23,370 nucleotides of DNA from a virus. The notes under the pieces were generated by a model. The model searched no databases and had not been told where the DNA came from. It saw only the letters and a program-made list of their open reading frames with translations. Within the stretch, counting starts at the first letter, position 1. Every line of letters begins with the position of its first letter. The stretch lies in the IMG/VR virus record IMGVR_UViG_3300006751_000146, positions 1 to 23,370 of that record. One strand, 5' to 3'. Made by a program: the position numbers and the translations under genes. This document shows positions 3,515 through 23,370 of this stretch, in pieces.

Positions 3515-3522
3515 TATTTATG
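3515..3522 (-). promoter_or_regulatory. Candidate T4-type late promoter for gp15-gp16
   Basis: The minus strand reads CATAAATA, matching 7 of 8 bases of the T4 late core TATAAATA. It sits in the largest intergenic gap of the window (41 bases), 38 bases before the gp15 ATG. The gp14 stop TAA (3518-3520) is embedded in it. Confidence 0.6.
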
Positions 3523-6109
3523 GTGTACCAAAAGGATTCTGTTCAGAGAAGTCTAAAATTGAATCAGCCTCTGTCTCAATAGCATTATTATCTGCAAAAT
3601 TTGTAAGTGGTGGGAATGTTTCTGATGTTCTCAATACATATTGAGCTCCAGATTCAGAACCTGTTAGAGTTTCTCCTCTAACAAAACTTCCGTTCACATT
3701 CATGACCTCTAATTGATTGGTGGATTCATTCCATATCCTTACTCTAGCAGTAGTTCCACTTGATGATCCAGTTATAATCTCATTAAACTTAAACGATCCA
3801 GAAGAATCTGAAACAGGATCTTCAACTATTATCGTAGGTGTTATTACATAACCATGTCCAGCATCTGTAATATAGATTTTTTCAACTGCTCCTGCAGATG
3901 TTAAAGTTGAAATACCTGTCGCTGTAGCAATTCCCAAAGTATTATGATAGTCAATATAATTCTTGTCACCAACAGTATTTGAAATTGATACTGTTGGTGG
4001 TGTTAAATATCCGCCACCACCATACGTGATTAAAATGCCGGTAACGATGCCACATTGATCTCTACCAAGTTCAAACGCAGAAGTTGCAATACCAACATTT
4101 GTTGCTGCAGTTGACATGATGATACTGCTTTGACCAATACCAGAGACAAATGCATTTTCTACGATAAAATTATAAGAGTCACTATATCCAACACCCAGTC
4201 TTACTCTATCTCCAACAACAACTCCAAGAGTGTTGATTCCAGTAATTGTTGTAGATCCAATACCAACAGTTCCTTGATAATGGATAGAATTGAATCTTAT
4301 CGTTGCAATACCAGTTGCAGTAAATGTGCTCGCTGCTCCAGTTGGGGCAGCAATTGTGACTGTAGGAATCGCATTGTAACCATATCCACTGTTACCAATT
4401 GCAATTGAAGTGACTGATCCAGCAACTGACACTGTTGACGTTGCTGTTGCTCTAATAGGATATGGGACTGCAAAATTGAGTGTTGGAGTAACTGTATACC
4501 CAGCTCCGATCGTTGCCCCAGTGCCAACACACCATGGATCTGTGGTGCTATTAAATCCAACTGCAGTAACAACTCCGATAGAATTAACTGTCGCAATGCC
4601 AAGTGCTGTTGTGGTTGGACTAACAGTTCCTGTTCCAAGTCCAACAGAAACTTGTGGTTTTGAAGAATATGCTTTACCCCCAGTAGAAATTGCAACACTA
4701 CTACTATCAATTGCTGATCCTGAACTATATGCGGATGCAGCACTTTCTACAAGACCAATGGTTGCTGCAGCATAAGCATACCCCGGATGTTCAATTGTAA
4801 CTATAGGAGCACTAGTGTAAAACTTACCAGAATTGCCAATAGAAATTTGCGTAACATTTCCCCCATATAATGTAAATGCATTGATTGAGGCAGTCGCTGT
4901 AGCAGTGATTCCTGACCCTTCAGGAACCCCAAACGTGACCGTAGGTGCAGTTCTATAGAATACGCCACCAGTGGTGCCTCCTGGGAACAGGAAGGCGGAA
5001 GAACCAACGCTTATAGGTGCAGACATAATACTGACTCCACCACCAACCATTGGTGTTGCAAGAACTGCAGTTGCTGCAGCTCCGACATGTTTTGGTGTGG
5101 AGAATGTTACTGTAGGAGAATTAACATATCCTCCACCTGAAGAACTTACAGTGACTACTCCAACTCCACCAGTTGTAGAAATTCCTGATGTAGCGGCCGC
5201 TCCAGATCCTCCACCACCACTAAATTTAACCGTAGGTGCAGAAGTATATCCTGTTCCTGGATTGACTATTGCTACTCCCTGAACAGATCTTAATTTATTA
5301 TTTGTGTTTGTATTGCAAACATTTATACCACTTATCATTTGAGAAGCTGTTCCTATTCCAGTTACTGAACCTGCAAATCCTACTGATGAAACTCCTACTG
5401 TTGGTAAAGTGCTATAACCCGCTCCTCTATTAGTGAGCCTTATGAACCTGATACCATTGTTTACGAGTGAGGTATTTGCTGTAGCAGTAGATCCCGTTCC
5501 AACAACATAGAGGAGTTGTGCTATTCCTATAATTGTTGACGTGCCACTCTCAGATGTTCCATCATAATCATCTCCGATCAACTCATTATCAATCTCTTCA
5601 ACTCCAGTATCGATAACTTCATCTTCAATACGGAAGAGTTCACATCTCAACTCATAAACGTAGTTTTTTTGTAATTGATAGAATGGTTTTTCGTGCTCTA
5701 CATATTTAATTTCAAATAACCTATCTCCTAAGGGAAAATATATTAAATCTCCTTCTTTTGGTCTAGTTGAAAGTTTTACATCGGATTCATTCTTCATCAA
5801 TGGAGAAATATAAGTCTCAAATCTCTCCTTGGAAATAATTAAAGTTATTTCATTCGTCGCTTGAATGCCAAATTTAGATAGAAGTGTTGGATTATCACCA
5901 TATCCTTCAAAAGATTCGACATAAGCCTCTATTGGATAAGCATCATCAAACTTTGATTCTATTACTTCTCTTATAATAGTATTTTGTGTTAGATATTTTC
6001 TTGGCAAAAAATGTACATTTATGCCATATATCCTTAACTGTTCATTAATTAAATCCTGGACAAGATTTTGCTCTCCAGAGGATCCTTGTTGAAAAAATGG
6101 ATTTAACAT
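3518..6109 (-). CDS. 14: Neck protein gp14 with a roughly 600-residue repeat insertion
   Basis: At 863 aa this is more than three times T4 gp14 (256 aa), the neck protein that with gp13 closes the head after packaging and joins it to the tail. The conserved core is residues 1 to about 180. It has GINVHFLPRKYL (T4 GVECYYVPREYV), AYVESFEGYGD (AYLNSFEGYEG), FGIQATNEITLII (FGMQVQDEVTLSI), PKEGDLIYFPLGDRLFEI (PKEGDLIYFPMDNSLFEI) and KPFYQL (DPFYQL). From about 181 to 800 runs a Gly/Ser/Thr/Ala/Val-rich array of some ten units of the form '...VTSIAIGNSGYGYNAIPTVTI'. Two GEI/LTG-x-x-SG-x-x-A units follow, then a C-terminal acidic tail that resembles the end of T4 gp14. The start ATG is 5 bases after the gp13 stop, with GGA 8 bases upstream. 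The extra mass would sit outside the neck ring, possibly as a collar decoration (inference). Confidence 0.94.
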   Translation of the reverse strand: MLNPFFQQGSSGEQNLVQDLINEQLRIYGINVHFLPRKYLTQNTIIREVIESKFDDAYPIEAYVESFEGYGDNPTLLSKFGIQATNEITLIISKERFETYISPLMKNESDVKLSTRPKEGDLIYFPLGDRLFEIKYVEHEKPFYQLQKNYVYELRCELFRIEDEVIDTGVEEIDNELIGDDYDGTSESGTSTIIGIAQLLYVVGTGSTATANTSLVNNGIRFIRLTNRGAGYSTLPTVGVSSVGFAGSVTGIGTASQMISGINVCNTNTNNKLRSVQGVAIVNPGTGYTSAPTVKFSGGGGSGAAATSGISTTGGVGVVTVSSSGGGYVNSPTVTFSTPKHVGAAATAVLATPMVGGGVSIMSAPISVGSSAFLFPGGTTGGVFYRTAPTVTFGVPEGSGITATATASINAFTLYGGNVTQISIGNSGKFYTSAPIVTIEHPGYAYAAATIGLVESAASAYSSGSAIDSSSVAISTGGKAYSSKPQVSVGLGTGTVSPTTTALGIATVNSIGVVTAVGFNSTTDPWCVGTGATIGAGYTVTPTLNFAVPYPIRATATSTVSVAGSVTSIAIGNSGYGYNAIPTVTIAAPTGAASTFTATGIATIRFNSIHYQGTVGIGSTTITGINTLGVVVGDRVRLGVGYSDSYNFIVENAFVSGIGQSSIIMSTAATNVGIATSAFELGRDQCGIVTGILITYGGGGYLTPPTVSISNTVGDKNYIDYHNTLGIATATGISTLTSAGAVEKIYITDAGHGYVITPTIIVEDPVSDSSGSFKFNEIITGSSSGTTARVRIWNESTNQLEVMNVNGSFVRGETLTGSESGAQYVLRTSETFPPLTNFADNNAIETEADSILDFSEQNPFGTP
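3790..5470 (-). repeat. Protein-level repeat array inside gp14 (G-x-G-Y-x-x-x-P-T-V-x-I units)
   Basis: About ten degenerate units are readable in the gp14 insertion, among them GAGYSTLPTVGV, GTGYTSAPTVKF, GGGYVNSPTVTF, FYRTAPTVTF, KFYTSAPIVTI, GAGYTVTPTLNF, GYGYNAIPTVTI, GGGYLTPPTVSI and GHGYVITPTIIV. Each is usually preceded by a short strand such as VTSIAIGNSG and followed by an Ala/Thr-rich strand such as ATATA. The pattern predicts a regular all-beta solenoid or bead-like chain. Units are divergent at the DNA level, so this is not a recent tandem duplication. Confidence 0.85.
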
Positions 6110-6986: not shown

Positions 6987-7372
6987 GGAGCTGCTGCTAC
7001 CGGAGGTATTACTAAAATGTTCCCTCTAACGAGAGAGTACGTGGTTGATGCTGCACTTACAACTAAGACATCGTAAACATATCTTCCCTCATTCAAAGAT
7101 CTGGTTACTCCAGAACTTAATGATATTTTCAATTTACCATCAGTTGCACTTGTAAATCCAACTGTAAATGCGGTCGTTATGCCAAGAGTAGCCCCTATAG
7201 AAACACTCTTTGATATAGCAGCGGAACCTGAATATCCACTCAAATTAAATGCTGAGTTATTGGTTCCAACAACTTCAAAGTTTCCCTCAAAGTTTGCTCC
7301 GCCAAGTATACTAAAATTAGTTTCTGGCGAAGCACCTGCATCCGGATCAAAAGTAATTGTTTTAGTTGCCAT
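6983..7372 (-). CDS. Small beta-rich virion protein candidate, 129 aa
   Basis: The 129-aa product begins MATKTITFDPDAG and is almost entirely beta-prone. Alternating segments (FEGNFEVVG, SGSAAISKSV, AFTVGFTSATDGKLKISL, GRYVYDVLVV) end in VRGNILVIPPVAAAP. The layout of a GNF...FNLSGYSG...LNEGRYVYDVLV...G.I.V chain resembles the N-terminal beta-sandwich of phage baseplate proteins such as BppU; this is a pattern resemblance, not a proven homology. AGGA (7382-7385) lies 9 bases before the ATG. The first 11 bases overlap the end of the upstream small gene, a sign of coupling. It sits between the large DUF4815 protein and gp13, where T4 has gp12/wac. A structural or assembly role is inferred from position. 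Confidence 0.75.
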   Translation of the reverse strand: MATKTITFDPDAGASPETNFSILGGANFEGNFEVVGTNNSAFNLSGYSGSAAISKSVSIGATLGITTAFTVGFTSATDGKLKISLSSGVTRSLNEGRYVYDVLVVSAASTTYSLVRGNILVIPPVAAAP

Positions 7373-7584: not shown

Positions 7585-10500
7585 TTATGCAGTAGCAATA
7601 ACTCTCAAGTCTTTCATTCTTGGTGGATAAGTTTGATTTAAACTTGTCATAACAACCTTAACTCTAAAGGATTTAAACGAAGGTAGATCGTCCGCAGTAA
7701 ATGTATACTCTCTAAAGTCTAAATCTTCAGAAGCGAATCCAGAGACATCAGATACTGTATTGTAAGTATCAGATTTGCCATTACTATTTTCAAGAGCAAT
7801 GATTTCTCCACGATCATTCAAGTTATCAAAACCAGGGAATGGTACGAATATAGGATCAAAATTAGCAGTTTCACTAACCGAGTAGAATACTCTGATGTCC
7901 GCATAATTGTTAACATGTGCATCAAGTATTACCTTAAGCGACGAAGCAGGATTTTCTAAAGTATTTTCTTTAGAAATATACTGGCAAGATGTTGGATCAT
8001 CATTCAAACTATTAACTCTATTGTCTTGAGCATAATTTGTGATTGGAGCATCAACTCTATTGGTTGTGAAAATCGCACTTAATCTTTGAGCGTCAATGAC
8101 AGGAGAAAGAAATTCGCTGGCAGTAGTAAGTTCGAGAGAAACATTCAATGAACGCTCCCCTGGAAGATCCTGCAAAGATGATGCTGAAGTTTCATTAACT
8201 CTGGAAGCAATAATTCTTGGGGAAGTGAGATAATTGCTATTGTTGAGTGTAAGAGCTTCCCTATCTTGAACGACGAATGGAAGATCAGTACCAGCACCAG
8301 ATCCATCATTCAAACTTGTTCCTGAAATAGATCTAATTGTTGCATTAATATTTGTTCCAGGAAGAGTCAAATTCTGAATCTGTGGGGTAATGATTTCGTA
8401 CTGCATATTTTGAGTAGCTTTGACACTAAACCCACCAGTAGATTTGGTCTGATCGAGATAAAGAATTGGGAAACTTTCTCCAGTTGTTCTGGCAACTCCA
8501 GAAGTTGCCATATCAATATTAAGGTTGTAAGAATCAAATGCAATTGGATTAGAAACGGTTACATCACTAAGAAGATGTTCCTTATTAATTCGTCTTAAAG
8601 ATACTCCACCAAGTTCATATTTGTAAATAGGAGTTCCTGCAGAATAATCGGTAGCAACTGTTCCATCAACCTGTCTTGTGATTCCTCCAAGAGTATTGTT
8701 AGAAGATTCAGTGTAAGACAGAATCTCATCACCAATCAGAAGGTAACCAGCATTAGTTGTACCAACACCAACATTTTCAAAAGTTCCAAAATCGGATGAG
8801 TCATCAATGCTGATGCCGCCCGTAGATGATGAATCATAAGCAACAGAAATCTTTGTTGGCATAATATCGGGTTCAATATCAGAAATAATTACTCTGTTAG
8901 TTTCATGGTGCATTCCATGATTCTTATGATCAACAACAATGTGACGACCATCAGAAATTGTAACAATAGAACTGACACGAGAAGCGGCATTCTCTCCACC
9001 AAGAGTGGTTCCAATACCAACGCTGTTAGTAAACATGATTGTGTTTCCAACACCAGTAATAAAGTCTCCTTGAACATTGTCAAGAATTAACTGGTTTGTA
9101 GAACCAAGGGAAACAACAGAGAATCTAGCATTTGTTCCTGTCTCTTGATTACCAAGTCCTTCAGTAATTTCAAGAACATCACCAATAGTGTAACCAGATC
9201 CACCACTACGAACCGTTGCAATAGAAACCACGCCATTAACAACATGGACATCTGCTGTTAAATCTAAACCAGTGCCAGTTATATTAGACATCGCAGTGTT
9301 ATCGTATCCGCGACTTCCACTGTGTGGAGTAAATCCAATACCAGCATTGATAAGATTAAGTTCACCTGTTGCAGAACCGGCGCTACCGACATAGTTGCCA
9401 GTTGCATTGGAATTTATTTGATAAATCGTGTTTCCGATTTCGGGAACATGACTACCACTATTTGCAAAGTTCAAACCTGTTGTTAATCCCACTCTAATTT
9501 TTCTAGAATTTAGATTAATTGGATCTGGCATTAATGTAGGAATTTGAGCATTTCCTTCAGCAAGAACAGGGCTATAAATTTCCACGGTTCCAGATTCGGA
9601 GAATCTTGCTCTGTTAATTACAAACTTGAGATCTTCCCATTGACTAGGATTCCATGTAGAACCATTCTGAGACTTGAAGAATGAACCAAGATTTGGTTGC
9701 TGAGAAACAAACTGATCAGTAAGTAGATCGTTTTCGCCAACTCTTGAAATCCAAACCTTATATTTTGTGGAAGCAGAAATTAAGACCATTGCATATTCAG
9801 TCTGTTCCTCAACATATACTGGAGAATCAAAGAATATTCTAGTTCCAACATCACCATCAGTAGATGTTTCAATACCTGCAGGAGCAATCGCCACTTCTGA
9901 GAATGGTAAAATAGTATCTGTTGGAATACCATTTTCCATTGTTCTCAATTGAAGTATCACTGGAATATCATTAGTATCAACTTCTGCAAAGAAAATATCA
10001 ATACTGGTTAAAAAGACTCCACTATCACCAAACACAGTGAATGACTGTGCAATCGGATCTCTTGGTCTTCTCCGTCTTCTAGCTCTTCTCCGTCTTCTCC
10101 GTCTTCTTCTGCGCCTCCTTACTCTTCTCGCACCTCTTCTTCTCCTTCTTCTTGCAACTCTTCTTCTTACAACTCTTCTTCTTCTTACGGGACGAGGAGC
10201 AGGCCTGCGGGGAGAAGGAGGCCTCCTCGGCGTTGTTGTTGGTGGGGACCCACCACCGCCGCCGCCACCACCACTACTTCTCGGTGGGGGATCCGGTGGT
10301 GGTGGTGGCGGAGTAAATGTAGTTCCTGTTAATACAGTCGTTGTAACTGAGCCAACTGTTGCAGTTGATGTAGTTGTACCTGTAAACTCTTCACGATCAA
10401 CTTGCTCTCTTTCAGCAATAACTTCAATCTTCGCATTTCGTACAGAAACAACGGACTCTTGTACTGTCTCCAGAGTTCCAGATGCAGTATATGTTTCTGA

Positions 10501-13500
10501 AGCTAATGTTAATGCTTCTTCCTCGCTATTTTGCTTATTATCAATTAGAACAAAAGTTTTTGTTCCAGTTGTGAACTTAGGATTCGCATTAATTACTGGT
10601 GAAGGAATAAAGAAACTTCCTAAAATATCAGAACTTAAATCCGTAATAAGTCTATTATTTACAATTTTAGCACGAGCACCCGAAGATCCTCCATATAGAA
10701 TCATTCCAGTCTCAATATATCCAAAGAATTCTCCGGCAGCTTGCTCTGCAAGAGCTAATGTATCAATATTAAGGAGTGCAGATGTTGCAGAGTAGGTAGA
10801 TGGAAGTGTTGCGGCACCTCCCAATGCAAACAGTTCATATTCGCCTCTTAGTGCTTCATCAGATTTTGCTCCTACTGTTGATGTATATGGATTACTTGCA
10901 TATAATCTATCTGGAGCATTGAAAGGTCCTTCTTTGTGATTTGGTTGACATAATCTAAATCTTATTTGAAATCCAGTTCTGAACGATGCACCACCAGTGG
11001 CAAGACTCTTAATCGGTCTTCCAAAAACAGTTTCTCCAACCTGGAAAGATCCTGTAAGCATCTGAACTTCCAGAAGTTTTGGAACACAGAATTTAGATAC
11101 ATCAATACCTTCAAAGAATGGATAAACTGTAGTTAGTGGTTTGAATCCTCTACCAACAAATTCAATATTTCTAGATCTCATGAAAGAGATCACCTCTCTA
11201 CTGATAGTTCTATCTCCAAGACTCTCAGTCTCAATTTGAGGTGTAATTAACTGTCTTCTACCATTTCTAAAGTTAATTCCAGTTCTGAAGTTGTCAGTAA
11301 ACGTATCTTGGAAAGTGGTTCTGGTGGTTGCTTGGAAGTTATTAGTTCTAGTTCCACCACGTTCGCCAGTATTAGTGGAGAAGTTTCTACGACCTGTAAC
11401 TTCAGTTCTCTGTGCTCTACGAATAGCAGTTCTAGTACCAGTCCACTGAGTTTGCCATGCATTCCAAAGAACTGGTGTTAAACCAGTTTGTGGATCAAAT
11501 CCACCAAACTGTCGAGCAGCAATATCTACAGTGTTTGCATAATTACCTTCAACATCAATAACCTTTGCTTTAACTCTAGCAGTATCGGTCCAAGTATCTG
11601 ATGCTGGAGTTAGTTTAATATTTGCTCTCCAGAAGCTTAACAGGAATGGAGTAACATTCTCAGTTCTGGTTGCATATTCTTGAGCAAGATACTCAACCTC
11701 GTCATAATCTAGAGTAACAATGTCTCCAGTTTTTCGAATATTAGTTCCCTCTGGGAATATTGACGACGCATTTAATGTTAAATCTACAACTGAAGGATCA
11801 ACCGGACCAATAACTAAATCAATGGCGTTTGTATAATGTGATGGTCTACACTCTTTATTGCTTTGATCAATACTATTTTTAATAACTCTACTATCTTCTT
11901 GTGGTAAAAAAGAAGTGAAGTTGTCTACAAAGAAACCTGACTTGAATTTGTTTAATCCCGAATTATCGGGTACAAATAAATTAGCAGTTTCTGTTTCTAA
12001 AATAGAAAGTGAAGTGTAGTATTCTAGGTTTCTAATTCTATCTTCCAGTTTTCCAATGTCACGCATCGTATATCTCTTATGATCTAAGAAATGAATTGAT
12101 GCGTCCTCTGTGCTATAGAGATATGGTGGAAGTGTGATAGTTGCAATTTCTAATGCATTATCAATAGGATCCGGTTTTTCTGGATTCTCCGCTGGATTGC
12201 CCAGTTTTATTTCAAAATCTCCTCTATCATTGATATATAATCTATCAATTCTTCCACCATAGAAAGAATAGTTTGTTACGATAGATTCGTCAGAAGCTAA
12301 AATATTTGTGGCAGAGTTTCCTGATGCAGTAAAACTTCTACCTAAAAACTCAAGGGGTGACCTAGTAGATTCTGCGATAATGTAATCAGATACTTTTGGT
12401 CTGATATCAATTATATCAGTGTTTCTATTACTATTAACTGTTTGAATTTCTTTACCATATTCAAAGGTATTATATGAATTATGTGTTGTTATATCTCCAT
12501 CATCTGAAGATTCATAGTATCCATTCTTAAAGTAAATTTTTAACTGCTTAGATGGTCCTTTAACATTAGATTTTCTAGTTAAGAAACCATAATCATAAAA
12601 AGTTGACTTTTGACCATTGTTAAAAGTATAGTTTGAAGAAACATCTTTACTAGGAATATCTAAAGATGAAATTACTGCCTGTAAATTAGATTCTTCAAAG
12701 GTGACAGTTTCTCCTTCACTGAAACCAAAATCATTCAAATCAATATAACTAAGTTGCTCGTCTGCAACTCTTTCTGCAACTACAGCAATTGATCCCGAAG
12801 TTTTGCCTGTAATTTTTTCTCCGATTATCAAATCTGAAGTTTTTCCAGTAAGTCCAGTAATTGAAGTTAAAGTTAATTTTGGTGCAGATGCTTCTGATGT
12901 ATTGTTTGATTCAAAAATTCCTAGAATTTCTAAAATATCACCAGTATTTAATGAGATTACTTCGTCCTGAACTCTTGTTCCATATGGATAATTTCCATAT
13001 GATAGACCATCATTTAAAGTAGTGGCTCCGACACCAGAACCGATTAACTTAGATGTACTAACAATCAGAGTGTTTACTCTGTTCTTCCTCTTTAGTTTTG
13101 CTTTGGGTTTTACTTTTTTAATCGTGGTGACTAATTTTGCCTCCATATTGGCAGACAAATCAACCCCAATGTTGTTAATTTGAAGAACTGTATTACCACT
13201 TGTAAATGACATCCTATCTGAGGTTAGGATCTCGGTAGTTCCGTCAGATCTTACGAGAGAATATCTTTCTTCATCAAATGCTAAGAATGTTTCATTGCTC
13301 CCAGCAGTAACACCAGAATTTAATTGATTGTCTGTTGTAACAATAACATCAAAAGATTTTCTTATGATCAGTTGTGCATCGCTAAGATCAACATTAGCAA
13401 TATTTCGCTTCGGCATTTCTGTAAATAACCGATTCTCACTAGCATCTGCTAAAGGAGTGCTGATAAGTCTCAGATCAGATACACTTACAATATTTGCTGC

Positions 13501-15495
13501 ACCTGTCTGAGGAATTTGTCCTTCACTTACTTTTGATACTGTTGTAACTCCGGTAACTGTGACTTGAGAACTACCAACACTAACAATTCTTGCTAAGGTT
13601 TGTGTAGATTGTGCAGTTGCGACTCCAGTATTCGTAAATGCTAAAATATTACCAACTTTAAGATTTCCAGGAAATCTTTCAGAAATACTGGTTACGGTAC
13701 TAATACCACTAGTGCGAATCCTGTCAGTAACTTGGGCTTGGCCAAAGAAGAAAGAGTCTTTTTGAATAGTATCCGCAATAAAAGTTAGACCAACTCCAAC
13801 AACTCCTGGTCCTACAGATACAGACGGACCACCGTAAATTGCTTTAACATCGGCCATTGAATGTGCTGTTACCGCAATAGCGACTCTAGTATCCTCTACA
13901 CCATTAACAATAAGTGGCTCATTCTTAAGGAAAGTTCCTACAGTATCATATAATTGTAGAGAAGTACTAGCAGATACAGAATCTCTTAAGAATGCTTTTG
14001 ATCCACTATACTTTCCTTTTATAAAAGTTGGTACGGTAAGAGTAGTAGGCTCATTTAATGTTATATTTGTTTGCAATCTAACATCAAACAGAGAAATATC
14101 CCATTGATTTATGGTTGAAAATTCAGAATCATACGATCCAGATTCTAATGCACAATCATATATTCTTGCTAACCCAATCTCTTCTCCAGGAGCATCTGTG
14201 CTGACGCCAGCTCTTTGGTCACGTAAACTTACAATATAACTATTTCCAATACCAATTTCTGGAGCTCCTTTGATATTATTTGCCCTTACAGTTACGCCTG
14301 TATTATAATTTACCGCTTGATTGGTTAAAGTTGCAGCATCTCTTGTTTTAGGAAAACTTAAGTATGCGGTATCTAAAGATCTTACTTCATATCCCTTAAC
14401 AAATGCTTTTCCTGGAGCAATAGCATATAAACCAACATCATCGCTTACTTGTCTTCCATCTCCAGTATCTTGACCTTCTGCATATACACCATCATTACCG
14501 AGATTATCGTTAAGAGAATTTCTAATTTCTATTCCGAATGGAGTAACTGTGTAATCACCAGATTCAGCGAAAGTTCTTCTTGCTAATTCATTTCTAAGTA
14601 ACTTATATTGGGAAGTGTCAGTAACAAAATCACTTTGAAGTACACCATCTTCTACTTTTGCAAGTTCTACGAAGTTATTATCATTAAGGTCTTCTATAGC
14701 CTTAAATGCTAAGGTACACTGTATTTTTAACCTATCAGCACCTGGTGCTGCATAGTTATTAAATCCTTTTGAGTTATCCGCAAGTGTGAGATCTTCGTCA
14801 GCATTAACAATACTTTCTTGAATATTAAATCCAATTCTTCCTGTGGGGAGATTATCATATTGATCTAATAATATAGTTTGTGCTGCAATATTGACAAAAT
14901 TGCCTCTAATAAAATATACACCATTATCAACTGAGAAGGTAGCTCCACATGTAACGGAGTTTTCTGTTAAAGTTGATGCAAAAGATTCGCCTGCAGGAAC
15001 AAAAACGTTATTTTCTGGGCCAGAAACAATATTATCATCACATGCTAAAAGTTCACCATCATTAAATTCTGATTGAGCATTGTCACCAATACCAGACGAA
15101 AGATATGAAATATAAAGTGTGGTAATATCAAAGTCACTCTGCTCTGGAGTGATAAAATTTACAACCTCAGCAGTAACACCAGTAGTAACACCATATATTC
15201 TTTTACCTATCAGCTGCGATAGATATGCACTAACGGGTATACCTAAGTGTGTTGGATTTATGGAAACACCAGTATATCCAGTATCATATGTAGTATTTCC
15301 GGGAATTACTTTAGCTCCCTCCTTAAACACATGGGAACCAAATTGTTCAATTTGATTTTGAAGAATTGACTGCAGTCCCGTCAGTTCCCTCGCTTGAACA
15401 GGGTATCCAGGTTTAAACAGAACCTTATAATAGTCATTTGATGATTTAAAATCATCAAAATATGGTGATACATTGAGGTTAGTTTGTTGCGCCAT
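7585..15495 (-). CDS. Giant DUF4815-type tail/baseplate structural protein with arginine-rich tract
   Basis: This is a 2636-aa virion protein. The N-terminus (about 20-55: YYKVLFKPGYPVQARELTGL, then SILQNQIEQFG) is the signature of the DUF4815 family of phage structural proteins. Other recognisable blocks are TMRDIGKLEDRIRNLEYYTS near 1143-1165; FMRSRNIEFVGRGFKPLTTV with YPFFEGIDVSKFC near 1438-1470; a Pro/Gly/Arg-rich linker at 1729-1812; and DPIAQSFTVFGDSGVFLTSI from 1813. A GDEI...GITRQVDGT module lies at about 2245-2290, and the C-terminal beta domain ends YPPRMKDLRVIATA. The ATG at 15495 is 6 bases after the gp8 stop with no clear Shine-Dalgarno, so translation probably depends on coupling to gp8. 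It occupies the position of T4 gp9-gp12 and probably forms peripheral baseplate or fibre-attachment structures (inference from synteny). No enzymatic motif was seen. Confidence 0.88.
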   Translation of the reverse strand: MAQQTNLNVSPYFDDFKSSNDYYKVLFKPGYPVQARELTGLQSILQNQIEQFGSHVFKEGAKVIPGNTTYDTGYTGVSINPTHLGIPVSAYLSQLIGKRIYGVTTGVTAEVVNFITPEQSDFDITTLYISYLSSGIGDNAQSEFNDGELLACDDNIVSGPENNVFVPAGESFASTLTENSVTCGATFSVDNGVYFIRGNFVNIAAQTILLDQYDNLPTGRIGFNIQESIVNADEDLTLADNSKGFNNYAAPGADRLKIQCTLAFKAIEDLNDNNFVELAKVEDGVLQSDFVTDTSQYKLLRNELARRTFAESGDYTVTPFGIEIRNSLNDNLGNDGVYAEGQDTGDGRQVSDDVGLYAIAPGKAFVKGYEVRSLDTAYLSFPKTRDAATLTNQAVNYNTGVTVRANNIKGAPEIGIGNSYIVSLRDQRAGVSTDAPGEEIGLARIYDCALESGSYDSEFSTINQWDISLFDVRLQTNITLNEPTTLTVPTFIKGKYSGSKAFLRDSVSASTSLQLYDTVGTFLKNEPLIVNGVEDTRVAIAVTAHSMADVKAIYGGPSVSVGPGVVGVGLTFIADTIQKDSFFFGQAQVTDRIRTSGISTVTSISERFPGNLKVGNILAFTNTGVATAQSTQTLARIVSVGSSQVTVTGVTTVSKVSEGQIPQTGAANIVSVSDLRLISTPLADASENRLFTEMPKRNIANVDLSDAQLIIRKSFDVIVTTDNQLNSGVTAGSNETFLAFDEERYSLVRSDGTTEILTSDRMSFTSGNTVLQINNIGVDLSANMEAKLVTTIKKVKPKAKLKRKNRVNTLIVSTSKLIGSGVGATTLNDGLSYGNYPYGTRVQDEVISLNTGDILEILGIFESNNTSEASAPKLTLTSITGLTGKTSDLIIGEKITGKTSGSIAVVAERVADEQLSYIDLNDFGFSEGETVTFEESNLQAVISSLDIPSKDVSSNYTFNNGQKSTFYDYGFLTRKSNVKGPSKQLKIYFKNGYYESSDDGDITTHNSYNTFEYGKEIQTVNSNRNTDIIDIRPKVSDYIIAESTRSPLEFLGRSFTASGNSATNILASDESIVTNYSFYGGRIDRLYINDRGDFEIKLGNPAENPEKPDPIDNALEIATITLPPYLYSTEDASIHFLDHKRYTMRDIGKLEDRIRNLEYYTSLSILETETANLFVPDNSGLNKFKSGFFVDNFTSFLPQEDSRVIKNSIDQSNKECRPSHYTNAIDLVIGPVDPSVVDLTLNASSIFPEGTNIRKTGDIVTLDYDEVEYLAQEYATRTENVTPFLLSFWRANIKLTPASDTWTDTARVKAKVIDVEGNYANTVDIAARQFGGFDPQTGLTPVLWNAWQTQWTGTRTAIRRAQRTEVTGRRNFSTNTGERGGTRTNNFQATTRTTFQDTFTDNFRTGINFRNGRRQLITPQIETESLGDRTISREVISFMRSRNIEFVGRGFKPLTTVYPFFEGIDVSKFCVPKLLEVQMLTGSFQVGETVFGRPIKSLATGGASFRTGFQIRFRLCQPNHKEGPFNAPDRLYASNPYTSTVGAKSDEALRGEYELFALGGAATLPSTYSATSALLNIDTLALAEQAAGEFFGYIETGMILYGGSSGARAKIVNNRLITDLSSDILGSFFIPSPVINANPKFTTGTKTFVLIDNKQNSEEEALTLASETYTASGTLETVQESVVSVRNAKIEVIAEREQVDREEFTGTTTSTATVGSVTTTVLTGTTFTPPPPPPDPPPRSSGGGGGGGGSPPTTTPRRPPSPRRPAPRPVRRRRVVRRRVARRRRRRGARRVRRRRRRRRRRRRARRRRRPRDPIAQSFTVFGDSGVFLTSIDIFFAEVDTNDIPVILQLRTMENGIPTDTILPFSEVAIAPAGIETSTDGDVGTRIFFDSPVYVEEQTEYAMVLISASTKYKVWISRVGENDLLTDQFVSQQPNLGSFFKSQNGSTWNPSQWEDLKFVINRARFSESGTVEIYSPVLAEGNAQIPTLMPDPINLNSRKIRVGLTTGLNFANSGSHVPEIGNTIYQINSNATGNYVGSAGSATGELNLINAGIGFTPHSGSRGYDNTAMSNITGTGLDLTADVHVVNGVVSIATVRSGGSGYTIGDVLEITEGLGNQETGTNARFSVVSLGSTNQLILDNVQGDFITGVGNTIMFTNSVGIGTTLGGENAASRVSSIVTISDGRHIVVDHKNHGMHHETNRVIISDIEPDIMPTKISVAYDSSSTGGISIDDSSDFGTFENVGVGTTNAGYLLIGDEILSYTESSNNTLGGITRQVDGTVATDYSAGTPIYKYELGGVSLRRINKEHLLSDVTVSNPIAFDSYNLNIDMATSGVARTTGESFPILYLDQTKSTGGFSVKATQNMQYEIITPQIQNLTLPGTNINATIRSISGTSLNDGSGAGTDLPFVVQDREALTLNNSNYLTSPRIIASRVNETSASSLQDLPGERSLNVSLELTTASEFLSPVIDAQRLSAIFTTNRVDAPITNYAQDNRVNSLNDDPTSCQYISKENTLENPASSLKVILDAHVNNYADIRVFYSVSETANFDPIFVPFPGFDNLNDRGEIIALENSNGKSDTYNTVSDVSGFASEDLDFREYTFTADDLPSFKSFRVKVVMTSLNQTYPPRMKDLRVIATA
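10054..10317 (-). repeat. Low-complexity Pro / Gly / Arg tract within the DUF4815 protein
   Basis: Reading along the protein there are six Pro, Asp and three Pro (1729-1738), eight consecutive Gly (1742-1749), a Pro/Arg-mixed stretch (1756-1769), then a tract at 1771-1810 in which 32 of 40 residues are Arg, including a run of 12 (1793-1804). The Arg codons are mainly AGA with scattered CGG, AGG and CGC, so the plus strand is an almost pure pyrimidine triplet repeat over 10066-10185. The reading frame continues intact on both sides into conserved sequence, so the tract is translated and not an assembly break. Confidence 0.9.
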
Positions 15496-17084: not shown

Positions 17085-20000
17085 TTATGTACTATAACTT
17101 TGGACCTTCAGCGATTTTTGTCTAATCACTACAGGACCTGTTTCAATTCCAGTAATACCGTTTGTAACATTTACTGGATATGTTTGAAGTTTATTTCTAT
17201 CTGTTAACAGTAATTTACCCCAACTGTAGTCTCCGTAGAAGTGACTGACTGCTAATCCAGTTAATCCGTCAGTAGAACTGACACTAACAACAACCTGAGT
17301 TACTGTAGTTTGTCCAAAACCAATAGCATCAGTTGATACGCCAGTAGTAGTATGAGCAACTCTATAAACTCCATCCATAAAGGATGTACCAACGCCAACA
17401 ACAGCATTGTTTTCATCTAAGGATGTCAAACCATTACCAACGTTTGAATTCCTAATAACAAACAGATCGCCAGTACCAATTCCACTTGCATTAATTGCCG
17501 ATGGTTGAGTAATATCACTGTTTCTCAAGAATGAATCATGTGGAATAACTAGATCAAGAACTAATCCAGTAACAGCAACACCTGCTATAGATGTTGTTCC
17601 AATACCAGTTATAATTCCAAAATCACCAGAATAAGAATCAATTGTATTTGTCTCCGTTACAAAGGTTGGAGGTCCAATTAATACTCTAGGATGAGTTGTT
17701 TGTGCATAACCAATGCCACCAGTATCTACGGAGATTGAAGATACAGATCCACCAGAAATAGTCGCTGTAGCGGTTGCTCTAGAAGTTGTTCCTAACCCAA
17801 CAGGATTCTGTATAGTTACGGATGGGGCACTAGTATAACCTTTTCCTCCATCTGAAATAACTATTGATGTAACTGTGACACCATTTCCAACAACTGCTGT
17901 TGCAGCGGCCGCGACATTCTGAGGATTATCTACAAAAAGAATATCCTTTTGGAAATTAGTGTTAACTTTATTTTCATTCGCAGCATTAAAGAATGGTCTT
18001 ACATTATCAACGTTAATAACTGTGGATCCAATTCCAACAGATTTAATTATATAAGTCGATGGGAAGATTTTTGCATTATAAAGATCTCTTGCCTTACTAA
18101 TTTGCTTACCAGCAACAAATCTATCTTCAGTTTGTCTACACCATTTAACAGGTCTCAACATTCTAGTCTTATCACTGAGACCACCACCATAATATGGATT
18201 TGTATCAACAGAACTTGATGATGTTATCTCAGAAACTGTGCGAGAATCTTCTTGCAAGAATCTACCTTGATTGATATTTAATGGAGTTTGCTTCAGGTTT
18301 CTATCATATCCAATAGTAAGATCATCACCAGTCTTTACAGTTTCAATGATATCTCTATCAACAACATCAGCACCACCAGTTCCTCTATAGAAAATTAATT
18401 TAAAACTATCCCCTGCTTTGGGTGCTTCTTCAAAACTGAAGTTACTTCCTCCAGTAAAGAAGTATGATTCTTCTGGAACTTGAAGAATGTCATTAACAAA
18501 GAGTAGTAAAGTATCTTGAACTTTTACAAGTGATCCAGGTGCAGATTGAATAGAGAAAGAATTTCCGCCTAATGAAATTGGGAATGTCTTTGTTACTCCG
18601 TCAAATAATTCAGATATATCATCAAGAACTTGAAGTTCTCCAATAGACCATGATACAAATGAATCAGAATCAATTTGCAGAATATCAACTTTAAATTCTT
18701 CAAAATTAGAAGATGATGTTGTGGGTATTCCAGTTGCACCTCCAGATGGGATAGTCAAGATTTGACCAACACCATATCCATATCCAGTGTTTGATAATGA
18801 GAAATCTATAACACTAGATCCTTGACCAACAACAACATCAATAGTTGCATTTACTCCACCAGATCCAAGAGAATCGGAGCTATATTCTAGTGGAATATTA
18901 TTATAACTATTTGGAGCATCAATAATTACCTTAAGTAATTGATTTACTTTACCACCCCTTGCATATAGGTGAGCTCTTGTTGATATACCGCTATCAATTT
19001 CAAACTCAGTTGCACTCAATACTCTCAACACGGAAGCACCATCAAATACAGGATCTTGACCACTAGCTGAGTTATTATTTCCTCTAGGAGCAATAACTGC
19101 AGGTTGGGCGGATCCACCAGAAACATATTGTGTAGGAACAGTGCATATACCAGCGTTAATTGTAAATTGAGTGGCACTCGCAACACCAACCACTGATGTG
19201 CCATCAAATATAGGATCTCCACCTCGTGGGTATCTGTGTTGAGTTGCATAGTTGTTCTTAGAACATGTGAATCTTAATCCTTCTTTCAATAACTTAACAC
19301 TACTCTCAGTTGTTAATGTATGAGCCTTCATCATGGTTAGCATCATATCACCAGTTGTCTGATAATAAGTGGCAGCAGTAACAGTATTAAATCCAACAGC
19401 AGATGTACCAACATTAATAGTAATAGTATTAGTTGATGCTGCTGTAATTACAGTATTAATTCCTGCTATAGGATCACTTGCACGAGGATATGCATGATCA
19501 GTACCGTACTGATCCATTTCACAAGCAAATGCTAATGAATTTGTACCAATTCCTACTAGGTCTCTTGCATGACTTATTCCATCAGGATCGGCAGATATCA
19601 ATGTATGAATTCCAGTATTAGTAGAAGGTACATTATCTAAAACTTGAATAGCAAAGGTATCAGTAGTTACATCAGAAATTGCAATCCACTTACCACTAAT
19701 TGGGTCTGTAGATCTTGGATAAGTTTTAGTAGCAGATCCAGTTACACAACTAAATGTCAGTGAATCATCAGTCAACTTAACAAAATCACCATTTGCGAAT
19801 CCATGATCAGCAACAGTTAAGGTAACAATACCAACTACTGGATCATAAGTTGCTGTTGTTGCTGTACTGGTACTTGGTGCATTTAATCCATGAGAATATA
19901 TTGTTAAAACTACATCTCCAGTAACAGCATTATAAGTAGCATCTTTAGCAGTAAATGATGTATTACCCGAAGACGTTACACCATCATTAGTTGCCCATCT

Positions 20001-23000
20001 AAATGCGTGCGAATATTCCCCTCCCACAATAACTGTACTTGCTGCAGCCCCTACAAATCTATGAGCATATTGATCCTTCTCAGCAGATGTAGTTACGTTT
20101 AGAGTGATTGTACCATCGTTATGGATTAGACCACCTGTAGTGGCACTGACGAAGGTGTGAGCACTAGTATTAGTAGATGGAGCAGCAGAAGCAGTTCCTG
20201 TAGTTCCTATTCCTAAAACATTAACTTGGAAAGTATTTGCAGTTACATTAGTAATAGGTAACCATTCTCCATGAACAGGATCGGTTGATCTTGGATAAGA
20301 ATGATTAGTAGTATTACTATCTTTAGCACATGTAAATGTTAATGACCCATCAAGGAATCTAACGTAATCCAAATTAGAGAATCCATGACTAGCAACTGTA
20401 ACTGTCGTTAAACCAGTTATAGGACTATAAAGTGCATTTGATACCGTATATGGCGTTCCATCGCTCTTAATACCTACGGCAGTGTCATATACCCTATCTC
20501 TGTTTCTAGGGTATATGTGGTTGACTGTAGCACCAAGTCCACATGTAAATGCCAAACCAGTTAATATCACATCACTATTCTTTCCTGTTGTAGAAAGGCC
20601 ATGTGCCCCTGTAGTGGTGACAGTCATGATACCCGTTACATTGTTATAAATTGCACTTTGGACACCAACAGCAGGCGCGTAGTCGCAAGTAAATGCAATA
20701 CCAGATACAATCACTTCATTACCAACAGATAGATTATGTGCAAATGCATTAGTTATAGTTGTTATACCAGTAATCGAAGAATAACCAACATTACAAATGT
20801 CTCTTGGTTTATAGAACACTCTACTATCTGTTACATCAACTCCAGTGATATGTCCATTGGAGACTGCAGCAGTTCCAATTGCAACAATATCAGCACCATT
20901 TAATCTTTCTCTCTGGATTGAAACATTTACAGTTTGTATTCCTGATCTATATCCGGAACCCGTATTTCCAACAGAGATAGATGCGATAGTTCCTGCAACA
21001 GAAACAATTGCAGTTCCTCCAGCAGATACGAGCGGTTGATATCCAAATCCTTCAGAAGATCCAACAGAAACAATGACACCACCAACTGGAATATTTGCAT
21101 TATTAGGATCATAACTAACAGAACTTGCAGTTCCTGTAAATCTTATACTGGAAATTCCACCAACTTCAGTTAAAGTATAATCATAATTATTTCCGGGTCC
21201 TTGGAATATATTATTGATTAATACCACTGCATTATTTGTGGCAACTCCTGTAACATTAGTTCCATTATCAACAGTTAGAGAAAATTCTTTATCTTTTCCA
21301 GTAAATTGTTGTGCAATATCATCATAAAGATAGTTATGAGTATATGATTCTAACGTAGAACCTTTTGTTCCAGATCTAAGGAATACTCTTCCATTAAAAG
21401 ATGAAGATGTTGTTATGCCAACCCAATCTCTTGAATCTGGCGGATTTGTTGGCGATTGAACTGGATTTAATCCGCTAGGAGCTTCAGCAAAATTCACACA
21501 ATTATCAACAATATTATAACCACCTCTTAGTTTGGTTATTGTGGCTCCTGTATCATGACCCACAATTGGAGTTCCCAACCATCCACGTTGAACTTTAACT
21601 CCATTTGTTGTACCAATACCAACACCAAGAATTTTCATAATTTCTCCAGTGTCTTTTGGACCAACTCGAATATAATCTGCTCCGAAGAATGAAGTCAATC
21701 CAACAAATTTGAGAATATCTGTATTTTTAATAGCATTATCTGATAAAACAGATGTAACAGAAGTTCCTGCAACAGGGGACTGAATAATATTGTCAATGGA
21801 TAAAATGACTTTTTGATTTTGATTTTTTGAAGTGAAACTATGAGATGTTCCAATACCAACACTGGTTAGATCAAGAGGAACTGCGATCATTTTAAGAGCA
21901 TCTTCCGCAGATCTTGCCAATTTAATTCTACTCTCACTCTGTTTAATAACAAATACGGATGTTGGTAACTGAGTTGTAGATCCAACACCAACGAACGTTG
22001 TTCTTGCAATACCAATAGCGTGAGTCCCAACTCCACTGGATGTTTCATACACAATTTCTTCGCCAGTCACAAAGAAATGATCAGGTATGGTAATAGTATC
22101 GTTTGATATATTAACAAATGATGTAGAAGATCCGTCAACAACTCTTCTGAATACATCAAGAGATTTATGTTGTAAATTAAATTGTCTCTTAACACTATTT
22201 TGTGTACCAGTGTAGATTGCATCTGAGTTTTTAACAGATGCATTACCAAAATCAATTTCCCTTTCTCCACCAACAACTCTTCCACTAGGACTTGGAGTGT
22301 CATTAGTTTCAGGTCTCATGGCATTCATATAGGTCTTAACTTCAATGTTTGCCCCGGCATCTGGTGTAAATGTGACCTCAGTATAATTTGAACCATCTCC
22401 AGCTCTTCTTGCACTAATTGTTCCAAGTCCTACAAAGGCACCTGAGCCAACTTGAGTATTACCATATTCAACAAGTTGTACGCTTTCAGGATCCTCATCA
22501 TTATAATCATCGATAATCAGAACTTCAGATACTTCATATCTTCCATTTGTTGTATCAGATACTTGAACGAAGCAATATGCTGCGTCATAAGCATCACTAT
22601 AACTTGCAATTCCTACCGCTACTGGACTTGATGTCGATGGAATAGTGGTTGACTTGGCTTCAATTGAACTATTCGTAAATTCATACGTACCAATTCCAGT
22701 ATATCCCTCAGAAGTTAATCCGACAGTTATTGTATTAACACTAGCAGTTGTCAATCCTGCAATAGGAGTATATGACACTCGTATATCACTTCCACTAATG
22801 GAAGCACCAAATGTTCCAATATTCGCTCCTGTAGAATATGCATCAAATGAATGTATCGTTAATTGACCATATTCCATCAATTGAACATTTGTTCCATCAT
22901 GAACAACAGTTAATTCGTCGTATTCAACAGTACCATCACTACCTTCAACATTAACAAGAATTTTTGCAGATCTAGAACCAGAAACGGTTGTTCCAATTCC

Positions 23001-23370
23001 AGCTAAAGTTACTATGGTCGTCTCTGCGCCACCTGCCATTTGAACAACAGATGATGCGATACTTACCAGTCCACCTGTAAATCCGGTTGACTCTCCAATA
23101 GAAGTGCTTCCTACTGAAACAAATTCTTGAGTTGTAGTAACTCCCAAAATATTAGCATCTATATTATATGAGAATAATCTCACATCATAATTATTATATT
23201 TAAACTTATTTGGGAAGAATTGTAAGACAGATTCTGCACCTTCAATAACTGAATCAAACGATCCAAGATCAAGAACAGTGTCAAGTGCTCCATATTGATT
23301 GGTCATTACCATTCCACGCCCAGTATCATAAAGGGCGTTAACAACCATAAGTTGTCTTTCTCCCGTAAAC
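17085..23370 (-). CDS. Giant repeat-rich virion structural protein, N-terminus probably beyond right edge
   Basis: An ATG at 23348 gives 2087 aa, but the frame stays open to the right edge. The seven codons before that ATG read FTGERQL, which joins smoothly to MVVNALYDTGRGMVMTNQYG, so the true start is probably outside the window. A GGGAG 11 bases before the ATG keeps an internal start possible. From the ATG: residues 1 to about 400 are beta-rich (twice LMEYGQLT/LVEYGNTQ); about 490-800 carry N-I-I/F-Q-x-P units (LSIDNIIQSP, VLINNIFQGP, later FVNDILQVP); 880-1400 carry the Cys/His-YPR array; then a conserved block with LLLFVNDILQ, EAPKAGDSFKLIFYRG, LRPVKWCRQTEDRF and IFPSTYIIKSVG; the end has GKGYTSAPSVTI and GIGYAQ repeats. 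It precedes gp8, the place of T4 gp7, so it is probably a baseplate-associated structural protein. Homology to gp7 is not visible. Confidence 0.82.
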   Translation of the reverse strand, partial: FTGERQLMVVNALYDTGRGMVMTNQYGALDTVLDLGSFDSVIEGAESVLQFFPNKFKYNNYDVRLFSYNIDANILGVTTTQEFVSVGSTSIGESTGFTGGLVSIASSVVQMAGGAETTIVTLAGIGTTVSGSRSAKILVNVEGSDGTVEYDELTVVHDGTNVQLMEYGQLTIHSFDAYSTGANIGTFGASISGSDIRVSYTPIAGLTTASVNTITVGLTSEGYTGIGTYEFTNSSIEAKSTTIPSTSSPVAVGIASYSDAYDAAYCFVQVSDTTNGRYEVSEVLIIDDYNDEDPESVQLVEYGNTQVGSGAFVGLGTISARRAGDGSNYTEVTFTPDAGANIEVKTYMNAMRPETNDTPSPSGRVVGGEREIDFGNASVKNSDAIYTGTQNSVKRQFNLQHKSLDVFRRVVDGSSTSFVNISNDTITIPDHFFVTGEEIVYETSSGVGTHAIGIARTTFVGVGSTTQLPTSVFVIKQSESRIKLARSAEDALKMIAVPLDLTSVGIGTSHSFTSKNQNQKVILSIDNIIQSPVAGTSVTSVLSDNAIKNTDILKFVGLTSFFGADYIRVGPKDTGEIMKILGVGIGTTNGVKVQRGWLGTPIVGHDTGATITKLRGGYNIVDNCVNFAEAPSGLNPVQSPTNPPDSRDWVGITTSSSFNGRVFLRSGTKGSTLESYTHNYLYDDIAQQFTGKDKEFSLTVDNGTNVTGVATNNAVVLINNIFQGPGNNYDYTLTEVGGISSIRFTGTASSVSYDPNNANIPVGGVIVSVGSSEGFGYQPLVSAGGTAIVSVAGTIASISVGNTGSGYRSGIQTVNVSIQRERLNGADIVAIGTAAVSNGHITGVDVTDSRVFYKPRDICNVGYSSITGITTITNAFAHNLSVGNEVIVSGIAFTCDYAPAVGVQSAIYNNVTGIMTVTTTGAHGLSTTGKNSDVILTGLAFTCGLGATVNHIYPRNRDRVYDTAVGIKSDGTPYTVSNALYSPITGLTTVTVASHGFSNLDYVRFLDGSLTFTCAKDSNTTNHSYPRSTDPVHGEWLPITNVTANTFQVNVLGIGTTGTASAAPSTNTSAHTFVSATTGGLIHNDGTITLNVTTSAEKDQYAHRFVGAAASTVIVGGEYSHAFRWATNDGVTSSGNTSFTAKDATYNAVTGDVVLTIYSHGLNAPSTSTATTATYDPVVGIVTLTVADHGFANGDFVKLTDDSLTFSCVTGSATKTYPRSTDPISGKWIAISDVTTDTFAIQVLDNVPSTNTGIHTLISADPDGISHARDLVGIGTNSLAFACEMDQYGTDHAYPRASDPIAGINTVITAASTNTITINVGTSAVGFNTVTAATYYQTTGDMMLTMMKAHTLTTESSVKLLKEGLRFTCSKNNYATQHRYPRGGDPIFDGTSVVGVASATQFTINAGICTVPTQYVSGGSAQPAVIAPRGNNNSASGQDPVFDGASVLRVLSATEFEIDSGISTRAHLYARGGKVNQLLKVIIDAPNSYNNIPLEYSSDSLGSGGVNATIDVVVGQGSSVIDFSLSNTGYGYGVGQILTIPSGGATGIPTTSSSNFEEFKVDILQIDSDSFVSWSIGELQVLDDISELFDGVTKTFPISLGGNSFSIQSAPGSLVKVQDTLLLFVNDILQVPEESYFFTGGSNFSFEEAPKAGDSFKLIFYRGTGGADVVDRDIIETVKTGDDLTIGYDRNLKQTPLNINQGRFLQEDSRTVSEITSSSSVDTNPYYGGGLSDKTRMLRPVKWCRQTEDRFVAGKQISKARDLYNAKIFPSTYIIKSVGIGSTVINVDNVRPFFNAANENKVNTNFQKDILFVDNPQNVAAAATAVVGNGVTVTSIVISDGGKGYTSAPSVTIQNPVGLGTTSRATATATISGGSVSSISVDTGGIGYAQTTHPRVLIGPPTFVTETNTIDSYSGDFGIITGIGTTSIAGVAVTGLVLDLVIPHDSFLRNSDITQPSAINASGIGTGDLFVIRNSNVGNGLTSLDENNAVVGVGTSFMDGVYRVAHTTTGVSTDAIGFGQTTVTQVVVSVSSTDGLTGLAVSHFYGDYSWGKLLLTDRNKLQTYPVNVTNGITGIETGPVVIRQKSLKVQSYST
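19020..20770 (-). repeat. Cys-x8-His-x-Tyr-Pro-Arg repeat array in the giant protein
   Basis: Six units of a degenerate repeat of about 50-85 residues are visible. Fuller units have a strand pair (YDPVVGIVTLTVADHGF), a core strand ending in F-T/S/A-C, then HxYPR, then DP and a strand such as TNTITINVG. The cysteines are at residues 888, 936, 1007, 1201, 1276 and 1362, counted from the ATG at 23348. Three units have Cys-x8-His-x-Tyr-Pro-Arg (HSYPR, HAYPR, HRYPR), one has Cys-x7-His (HIYPR), one lacks the His (KTYPR) and the first is truncated. Degenerate fragments such as QYAHRFVGA and HLYARGGK lie between and after the units. Confidence 0.82.
23360..23364 (-). promoter_or_regulatory. Shine-Dalgarno-like GGGAG before ATG 23348
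   Basis: GGGAG on the minus strand, 11 bases before the ATG. It would support an internal start at 23348, but the same bases code for a plausible protein continuation (TGE), so it may be fortuitous. Confidence 0.3.

What the first reader, a model, noticed from the sequence alone, without database searches (positions are those of the whole stretch)
10054..10317. Arginine-saturated linker (32 Arg in 40 residues) inside a conserved tail protein
A 6-Pro / 8-Gly spacer leads into a tract with a run of 12 Arg, flanked by conserved domains (FMRSRN...YPFFEG block before, DPIAQSF block after). Such a charge density is extraordinary for a virion protein. Possible roles are binding of lipopolysaccharide or another anionic host surface polymer, binding of DNA or RNA during tail assembly, a membrane-active segment exposed on contraction, or electrostatic clamping to an acidic partner.
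Basis: partly seen in the sequence, partly recalled or inferred. Interest (0 to 1): 0.62.

Follow-up and report, generated by a model that had tools for sequence, protein, structure and literature searches.

The report
Arginine-rich linker in phage baseplate protein
A tail-tip protein of a marine, cyanophage-like virus carries a floppy segment made almost only of the positively charged amino acid arginine, right beside a domain shaped like a sugar-binding protein; related viruses have gained similar segments at the same spot many times, which suggests a sticky, charge-based aid for holding on to cells.

Summary
Residues 1726-1812 of a 2636-aa DUF4815/VrlC protein (window 7585-15495, minus strand) form a Pro/Gly spacer and then 32 Arg in 40 residues (10066-10185), with a run of 12. 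The protein is homologous to the phi812 baseplate DUF4815 protein. In A511 the homologue (Gp106) forms pyramids that turn toward the cell. The tract is predicted to be disordered and directly precedes a lectin-like jelly-roll domain. In six relatives with 83-87% identical surroundings the tract persists as 34-43 Arg and zero Lys. Its Arg codons drift synonymously, so it is kept as protein and is not repeat noise. More distant homologues (about 54% identity and below) mostly have short neutral linkers. The site tolerates poly-Pro, acidic, DUF4214-like or Gly-rich inserts, and in at least 13 loci the gene is split there. Arg-rich tracts arose there about 12 times on a rough tree, always without Lys. 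Separate Lys-rich and (Pro-Arg)n versions exist, the latter in cultured phage S-SCSM1. Best reading: an evolvable, host-facing linker site whose cationic state gives generic electrostatic adhesion next to a carbohydrate-binding-like domain. Function is untested. New variant of a known kind.

The parts
7585..15495 (-). DUF4815 / VrlC-type baseplate protein, 2636 aa
   Evidence: Pfam PF16075 E 3.6e-47; phrog_358 E 0 over full length; phmmer to phi812 baseplate DUF4815 chain 9euf E 3.9e-42; lies between gp8 and the gp13/gp14 neck genes
10060..10320 (-). Interdomain linker 2: Pro/Gly spacer plus Arg tract (39 Arg, 0 Lys in 87 residues)
   Evidence: AF2 pLDDT 34-44 across it, no secondary structure
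10066..10185 (-). Arg core: 32 Arg in 40 residues, run of 12
9441..10059 (-). Domain C, lectin-like jelly roll beginning DPIAQSF; jelly-roll core about 9571-10059
   Evidence: AF2 model residues 386-542 match phi812 DUF4815 protein (9euj_G Z 15.8) and Cwp84 lectin-like domain (4ci7_B Z 9.0)
10456..11220 (-). Domain B (SLGDRTISREVISFMRSRN... to ...TVQESVVSVRNAKIE)
   Evidence: AF2 confident fold, model residues about 5-255; conserved in all homologues
11224..11440 (-). Interdomain linker 1, mildly Arg-rich here (up to 9 Arg in 40), strongly Arg-rich in several other lineages

Best explanation
The tract is the cationic state of an evolvable, solvent-exposed linker site in the DUF4815/VrlC baseplate protein. 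Shown: the site joins two conserved folded domains, is predicted disordered, tolerates very different inserts or a gene break, and in this clade is maintained by selection as Arg and not Lys. Inferred: as in the A511/phi812 homologues, trimers of the protein form peripheral baseplate pyramids that turn toward the cell on adsorption. Three Arg brushes per trimer (over 110 Arg) would then lie beside the lectin-like domains and give fast, reversible, low-specificity electrostatic adhesion to the anionic host envelope (uronic-acid, phosphate or sulfate groups), helping specific receptor binding to be reached. The Pro/Gly spacer would set reach and flexibility. Arg rather than Lys is expected if bidentate guanidinium contacts with such groups matter.
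For: Homology to a solved baseplate protein. VrlC as part of the two-layered baseplate (PMC7029224). A511 Gp106 pyramids reorient to contact the cell wall, and its homologues carry predicted CBMs there, one matched to Cwp84 (PMC11406892, PMC9863714); the same Cwp84 match was found independently here. Disordered linker. Maintenance as Arg: 25/41 Arg columns with synonymous changes, 0 Lys, against 2/15 Arg columns with Lys upstream; 0 Lys in all nine near tracts. Recurrence at the same site: about 12 gains, Lys 0 in all 16 tips; Lys-type versions L245, L246, L247. Site open to modules and gene splits. Neighbouring linker 1 becomes Arg-rich in the same proteins (rho 0.47, p 2e-5; other regions not). 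Cultured S-SCSM1 has a long (Pro-Arg)n tract, and its record labels VrlC a virion protein.
Against: No binding or virion data for this phage, and no cyanophage baseplate structure of this type to place the tract. In the unbiased sample only 2 of 55 joined clusters are this Arg-rich, and 3 of 55 are clearly acidic, so charge is not a general need of the site. Seawater ionic strength screens weak electrostatics. The L1/L2 correlation partly rests on loci found by an Arg pattern.
Confidence: 0.5

Rival explanations
1. Intravirion electrostatic latch: the Arg brush binds an acidic surface of another baseplate or fibre protein, holding the pyramid in its pre-contraction pose or aiding assembly, and is released on contact.
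For: All neighbouring structural proteins are net acidic (gp7-like -64, gp8 -16, gp14-like -24); linkers 1 and 2 gain Arg together, as expected if both face one surface.
Against: No acidic tract special to this phage: the most acidic 40-aa windows of the shared neighbours (about -8 to -12) are similar in SynMITS9220M01, which has no Arg tract. Fibre genes outside the window were not seen.
Confidence: 0.2
2. Contact with nucleic acid or membrane: a protamine-like or cell-penetrating-like segment that touches DNA during ejection, captures extracellular DNA or RNA, or perturbs the outer membrane after contraction.
For: Composition (Arg-only, no Lys, Pro/Gly spacer) resembles Arg-rich nucleic-acid-binding and cell-penetrating segments in general (own knowledge).
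Against: The homologous protein is peripheral in the baseplate, away from the DNA path (literature). No amphipathic or hydrophobic membrane segment in the tract. Not tested further.
Confidence: 0.12
3. Selectively neutral codon-repeat expansion in a tolerant spacer.
For: Tandem 9-bp period at 10065-10107; tract lengths vary; lineages use one unit each (poly-Arg, (Pro-Arg)n, poly-Lys), which suggests expansion as the origin.
Against: In the clade synonymous Arg changes abound while Lys, one transition away from AGA, never appears (0/41 columns). Single-nucleotide codon differences in the linker are 354 synonymous to 95 non-synonymous pair counts, like the conserved upstream flank (1148 to 372). 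Recurrent gains at one site.
Confidence: 0.1
4. Entropic or repulsive spacer: charge only keeps the three chains of a trimer apart and soluble, so any strongly charged or stiff linker would do.
For: Other lineages use poly-Pro, (Pro-Arg)n, acidic or Gly-rich linkers at the same site.
Against: Acidic tracts of comparable strength were not seen; the strongest tracts are basic.
Confidence: 0.08

Closest known systems
Staphylococcus phage phi812 baseplate DUF4815 protein (PDB 9euf, 9eui, 9euj)
   Same: Homologous over N-terminal, DUF4815 and lectin-like regions (E 3.9e-42; fold Z 15.8 for domain C)
   Different: 1152 aa against 2636; a SATA8505 (Herelleviridae) relative has 4 Arg and 3 Lys in the 40 residues before DPLAQSF; about 650 extra residues in the window protein's N-terminal half
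Listeria phage A511 Gp106 / Bacillus phage Gp120, Gp176 (VrlC, pyramid protein)
   Same: Same family by literature; a predicted CBM with a Cwp84 lectin-like match in the corresponding region (PMC11406892; here)
   Different: No Arg-rich tract reported; Gram-positive hosts
SynMITS9220M01 'structural protein' (MT408532)
   Same: 54% identical over 96% of the protein, same gene order
   Different: Linker short and mixed: 5 Arg, 4 acidic in 40
Synechococcus phage S-SCSM1 VrlC
   Same: Long Arg-rich tract at the same site; record labels it a virion protein
   Different: (Pro-Arg)n repeat ending in NDDDD before DPLAQSF; 42% identity overall
Arg-rich nucleic-acid-binding segments (protamine-like)
   Same: Arg-dominated, no Lys, disordered
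   Different: Embedded between two structured baseplate domains; no evidence of nucleic-acid binding

Membership tests
DUF4815 / VrlC / Gp106 baseplate protein | Pfam DUF4815 match above the curated cut-off | tested here: met
   161.4 bits against cut-off 30
DUF4815 / VrlC / Gp106 baseplate protein | Homology to a protein seen in a solved contractile-tail baseplate | tested here: met
   9euf E 3.9e-42; model to 9euj_G Z 15.8, rmsd 2.8 over 129 residues
DUF4815 / VrlC / Gp106 baseplate protein | Encoded in the baseplate/neck gene block | tested here: met
   gp8 (PF09215) on one side, gp13/gp14-type neck genes on the other; same order in SynMITS9220M01
DUF4815 / VrlC / Gp106 baseplate protein | Lectin-like (CBM) domain after the DP[LI]AQSF motif | tested here: met
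   Cwp84 lectin-like domain Z 9.0, other CBMs Z 5-6.5; a shared fold does not show sugar binding
DUF4815 / VrlC / Gp106 baseplate protein | Forms trimeric pyramids in a two-layered baseplate and reorients on contact | not testable with these tools
   Known for A511; no virion of this phage
RGG-type Arg/Gly RNA-binding segment | Repeated RGG triplets | tested here: not met
   No RGG in the window's linker; near relatives have a single RRGGRR
Protamine-like nucleic-acid-binding segment | Binds nucleic acid | not testable with these tools
   Composition only
Peptidase_S74 self-cleaving chaperone insert (as hinted at this site in L018) | S74 domain match | tested here: not met
   No match in the window protein; only sub-threshold in L018, E 0.0057

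The most novel reading that the evidence does not exclude
The two linkers around domain B of VrlC-type baseplate proteins are a recurrent evolutionary slot in marine T4-like phages where an unfolded Arg-only brush (Lys excluded) repeatedly evolves as a generic host-surface adhesive working alongside a lectin-like domain: a non-folded class of adhesion device.
Probability: 0.35. Interest if true: 0.75.

Novelty: new variant of a known kind. Interest (0 to 1): 0.52.

Why it matters
Phage attachment is normally explained by folded receptor-binding proteins. A repeatedly evolved, selected, unfolded Arg brush at the cell-facing edge of a contractile baseplate would point to a second, low-specificity mode of attachment. 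It could help explain broad host ranges among cyanomyoviruses: S-SCSM1, which has a (Pro-Arg)n tract, infects both Synechococcus and Prochlorococcus (PMC9602691). The Arg-only, Lys-free rule is a sharp clue that can be tested with peptides and one cultured phage.

Tried and rejected
(1) Antisense reading: the + strand ORF 10037-10795 (252 aa, Leu-rich) is the shadow of the Arg/Pro/Gly codons; not taken as a gene. (2) Internal start giving a separate C-terminal protein in the window: no Met near DPIAQSF, unlike the 13 split loci. (3) Acidic partner in neighbouring genes: none special. (4) psbA as a host marker in seven contigs of tract-bearing phages: none found, but they are fragments. (5) General need for positive charge at the site: not supported by the unbiased sample; the position of the most basic window coincides with the site in only 2 of 50 proteins. 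(7) The A511 structure paper (PMC6356063) and a paper naming 9EUF were not held.

Full report
WHAT IS THERE. The finding lies in a minus-strand gene, window 7585-15495, encoding 2636 aa. The linker is residues 1726-1812 (10320-10060). Its richest 40 residues hold 32 Arg (10185-10066), and the whole linker has 39 Arg, no Lys and one Asp, with a longest Arg run of 12. Given 4.4% Arg in the rest of the protein, such a window has a chance of about 3e-36. The tract's Arg codons are mostly AGA (27 of 39), as in the rest of the gene (85 of 113), so it does not look recently imported. No other protein in the window has a comparable basic stretch.

WHICH PROTEIN. Pfam calls DUF4815 (E 3.6e-47) and PHROGs give the full-length family phrog_358. 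Gene order is gp7-like, gp8, this protein, a 129-aa protein, gp13-like, gp14-like, gp15-like, as in the cultured cyanophage SynMITS9220M01, whose protein is 54% identical over 96%. phmmer finds the DUF4815 protein of the phi812 baseplate (9euf, E 3.9e-42), aligned over the N-terminus, the DUF4815 part and, most strongly, residues 1806-1977 starting at DPIAQSF. An AlphaFold2 model of residues 1425-2040 folds domain B and domain C well and leaves the linker disordered (pLDDT 34-44). Domain C matches phi812 (9euj_G Z 15.8) and then the lectin-like domain of Cwp84 (Z 9.0). The literature says VrlC is part of the two-layered baseplate (PMC7029224). In A511 the homologue Gp106 forms trimeric pyramids that reorient to contact the cell wall, and its Bacillus relatives carry two predicted CBMs, one also matched to Cwp84 (PMC11406892, PMC9863714). 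So the Arg tract sits immediately before a lectin-like domain in a peripheral baseplate protein. This is an inference by homology; the virion of this phage has not been seen.

IS IT MAINTAINED? Six near relatives (surroundings 83-87% identical; for five of them) keep the tract with the same layout: Pro spacer, Gly/Pro stretch, VRRRRVVRRRVARRR...RRRRGGRR...RRRRGRDPIAQSF. They have 34-43 Arg and zero Lys each; two more distant tracts (L012, L088) also have no Lys. Of 41 Arg-majority columns, 25 show synonymous Arg-codon changes and none shows Lys, although AGA to AAA is a single transition; upstream, 2 of 15 Arg columns show Lys. Pairwise single-nucleotide codon differences are 354 synonymous to 95 non-synonymous in the linker and 1148 to 372 upstream; these pair counts are not independent. 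The tract is selected as protein and as Arg. Repeat expansion may still be how such tracts start (9-bp period).

THE SITE IN OTHER PHAGES. The same position is hypervariable. It can be short and neutral, poly-Pro, Gly-rich, acidic (L080), or hold a DUF4214-like insert (below the Pfam cut-off). In at least 13 loci the gene is split there, the second gene starting with M-[KN]-x-[VI]-DP[LV]AQSF. A linker whose covalent continuity is dispensable, and which accepts modules, is most simply an exposed site. In the unbiased sample (55 joined clusters) the last 40 residues average 4.0 Arg against 1.7 in other windows, but only two clusters reach 12 Arg, so the extreme state is rare. L180 (C domain 49% identical) repeats the anatomy, poly-Pro then Arg with a run of 12; L186 and L184 and the cultured phage S-SCSM1 carry (Pro-Arg)n. 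A Lys scan found 23 stretches, among them true Lys tracts (L245 with 12 consecutive Lys, L246, L247). Linker 1, on the other side of domain B, is also an Arg hotspot in several lineages, and its Arg content correlates with that of linker 2 (rho 0.47, p 2e-5; no correlation for domain B, domain C or the N-terminal part; rho 0.36, p 0.025 in the unbiased subset alone).

MECHANISM. Best supported: a cationic, flexible brush at the cell-facing edge of the baseplate giving generic electrostatic adhesion to the anionic envelope beside a lectin-like domain (confidence 0.5). Shown: location, disorder prediction, selection for Arg, recurrence. Inferred: exposure, target and role. Rivals: latch to an acidic virion partner (0.2; no special partner in the window), nucleic-acid or membrane contact (0.12), neutral expansion (0.1), repulsive spacer (0.08).

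NOVELTY. The protein is an ordinary member of a known baseplate family. The Arg-only linker state and its repeated evolution were not found described in the literature searches made here, which cover only openly licensed papers.

Noticed in passing
window 3518-6109 (-): The gp14-like neck protein is 863 aa against 479 in SynMITS9220M01; Pfam T4_neck-protein matches only residues 2-166, the rest is Gly/Thr-rich repeat-like sequence.
   Followed up: no
L018 9161-9619: Where the VrlC-type gene is split, a small ORF that reads like a SET-domain protein (RGVFA..., NHS motif, judged by eye) lies just after the first half.
   Followed up: no
L057 about 7203-7268, L060 about 7665-7720: Some relatives split the gene also at linker 1, giving a separate small gene for domain B.
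   Followed up: partly
window 10216-10227: Perfect 12-bp palindrome AGGAGGCCTCCT (Shine-Dalgarno-like on either strand) inside the linker-coding DNA.
   Followed up: no
L245, site before DPLAQSF: A homologue with 12 consecutive Lys at the same site, the Lys counterpart of the Arg tract.
   Followed up: partly
L335, L336 (phages Sf-CH8, S-T4): Linker built of alternating Arg and Glu (RTREIRTREVVREVQRR), a mixed-charge version of the same site.
   Followed up: no
window 17085-23348 (-): The gp7-position protein matches PHROG baseplate wedge, tail fibre and virion structural families in repeat-like segments; it may carry further host-contact repeats.
   Followed up: no
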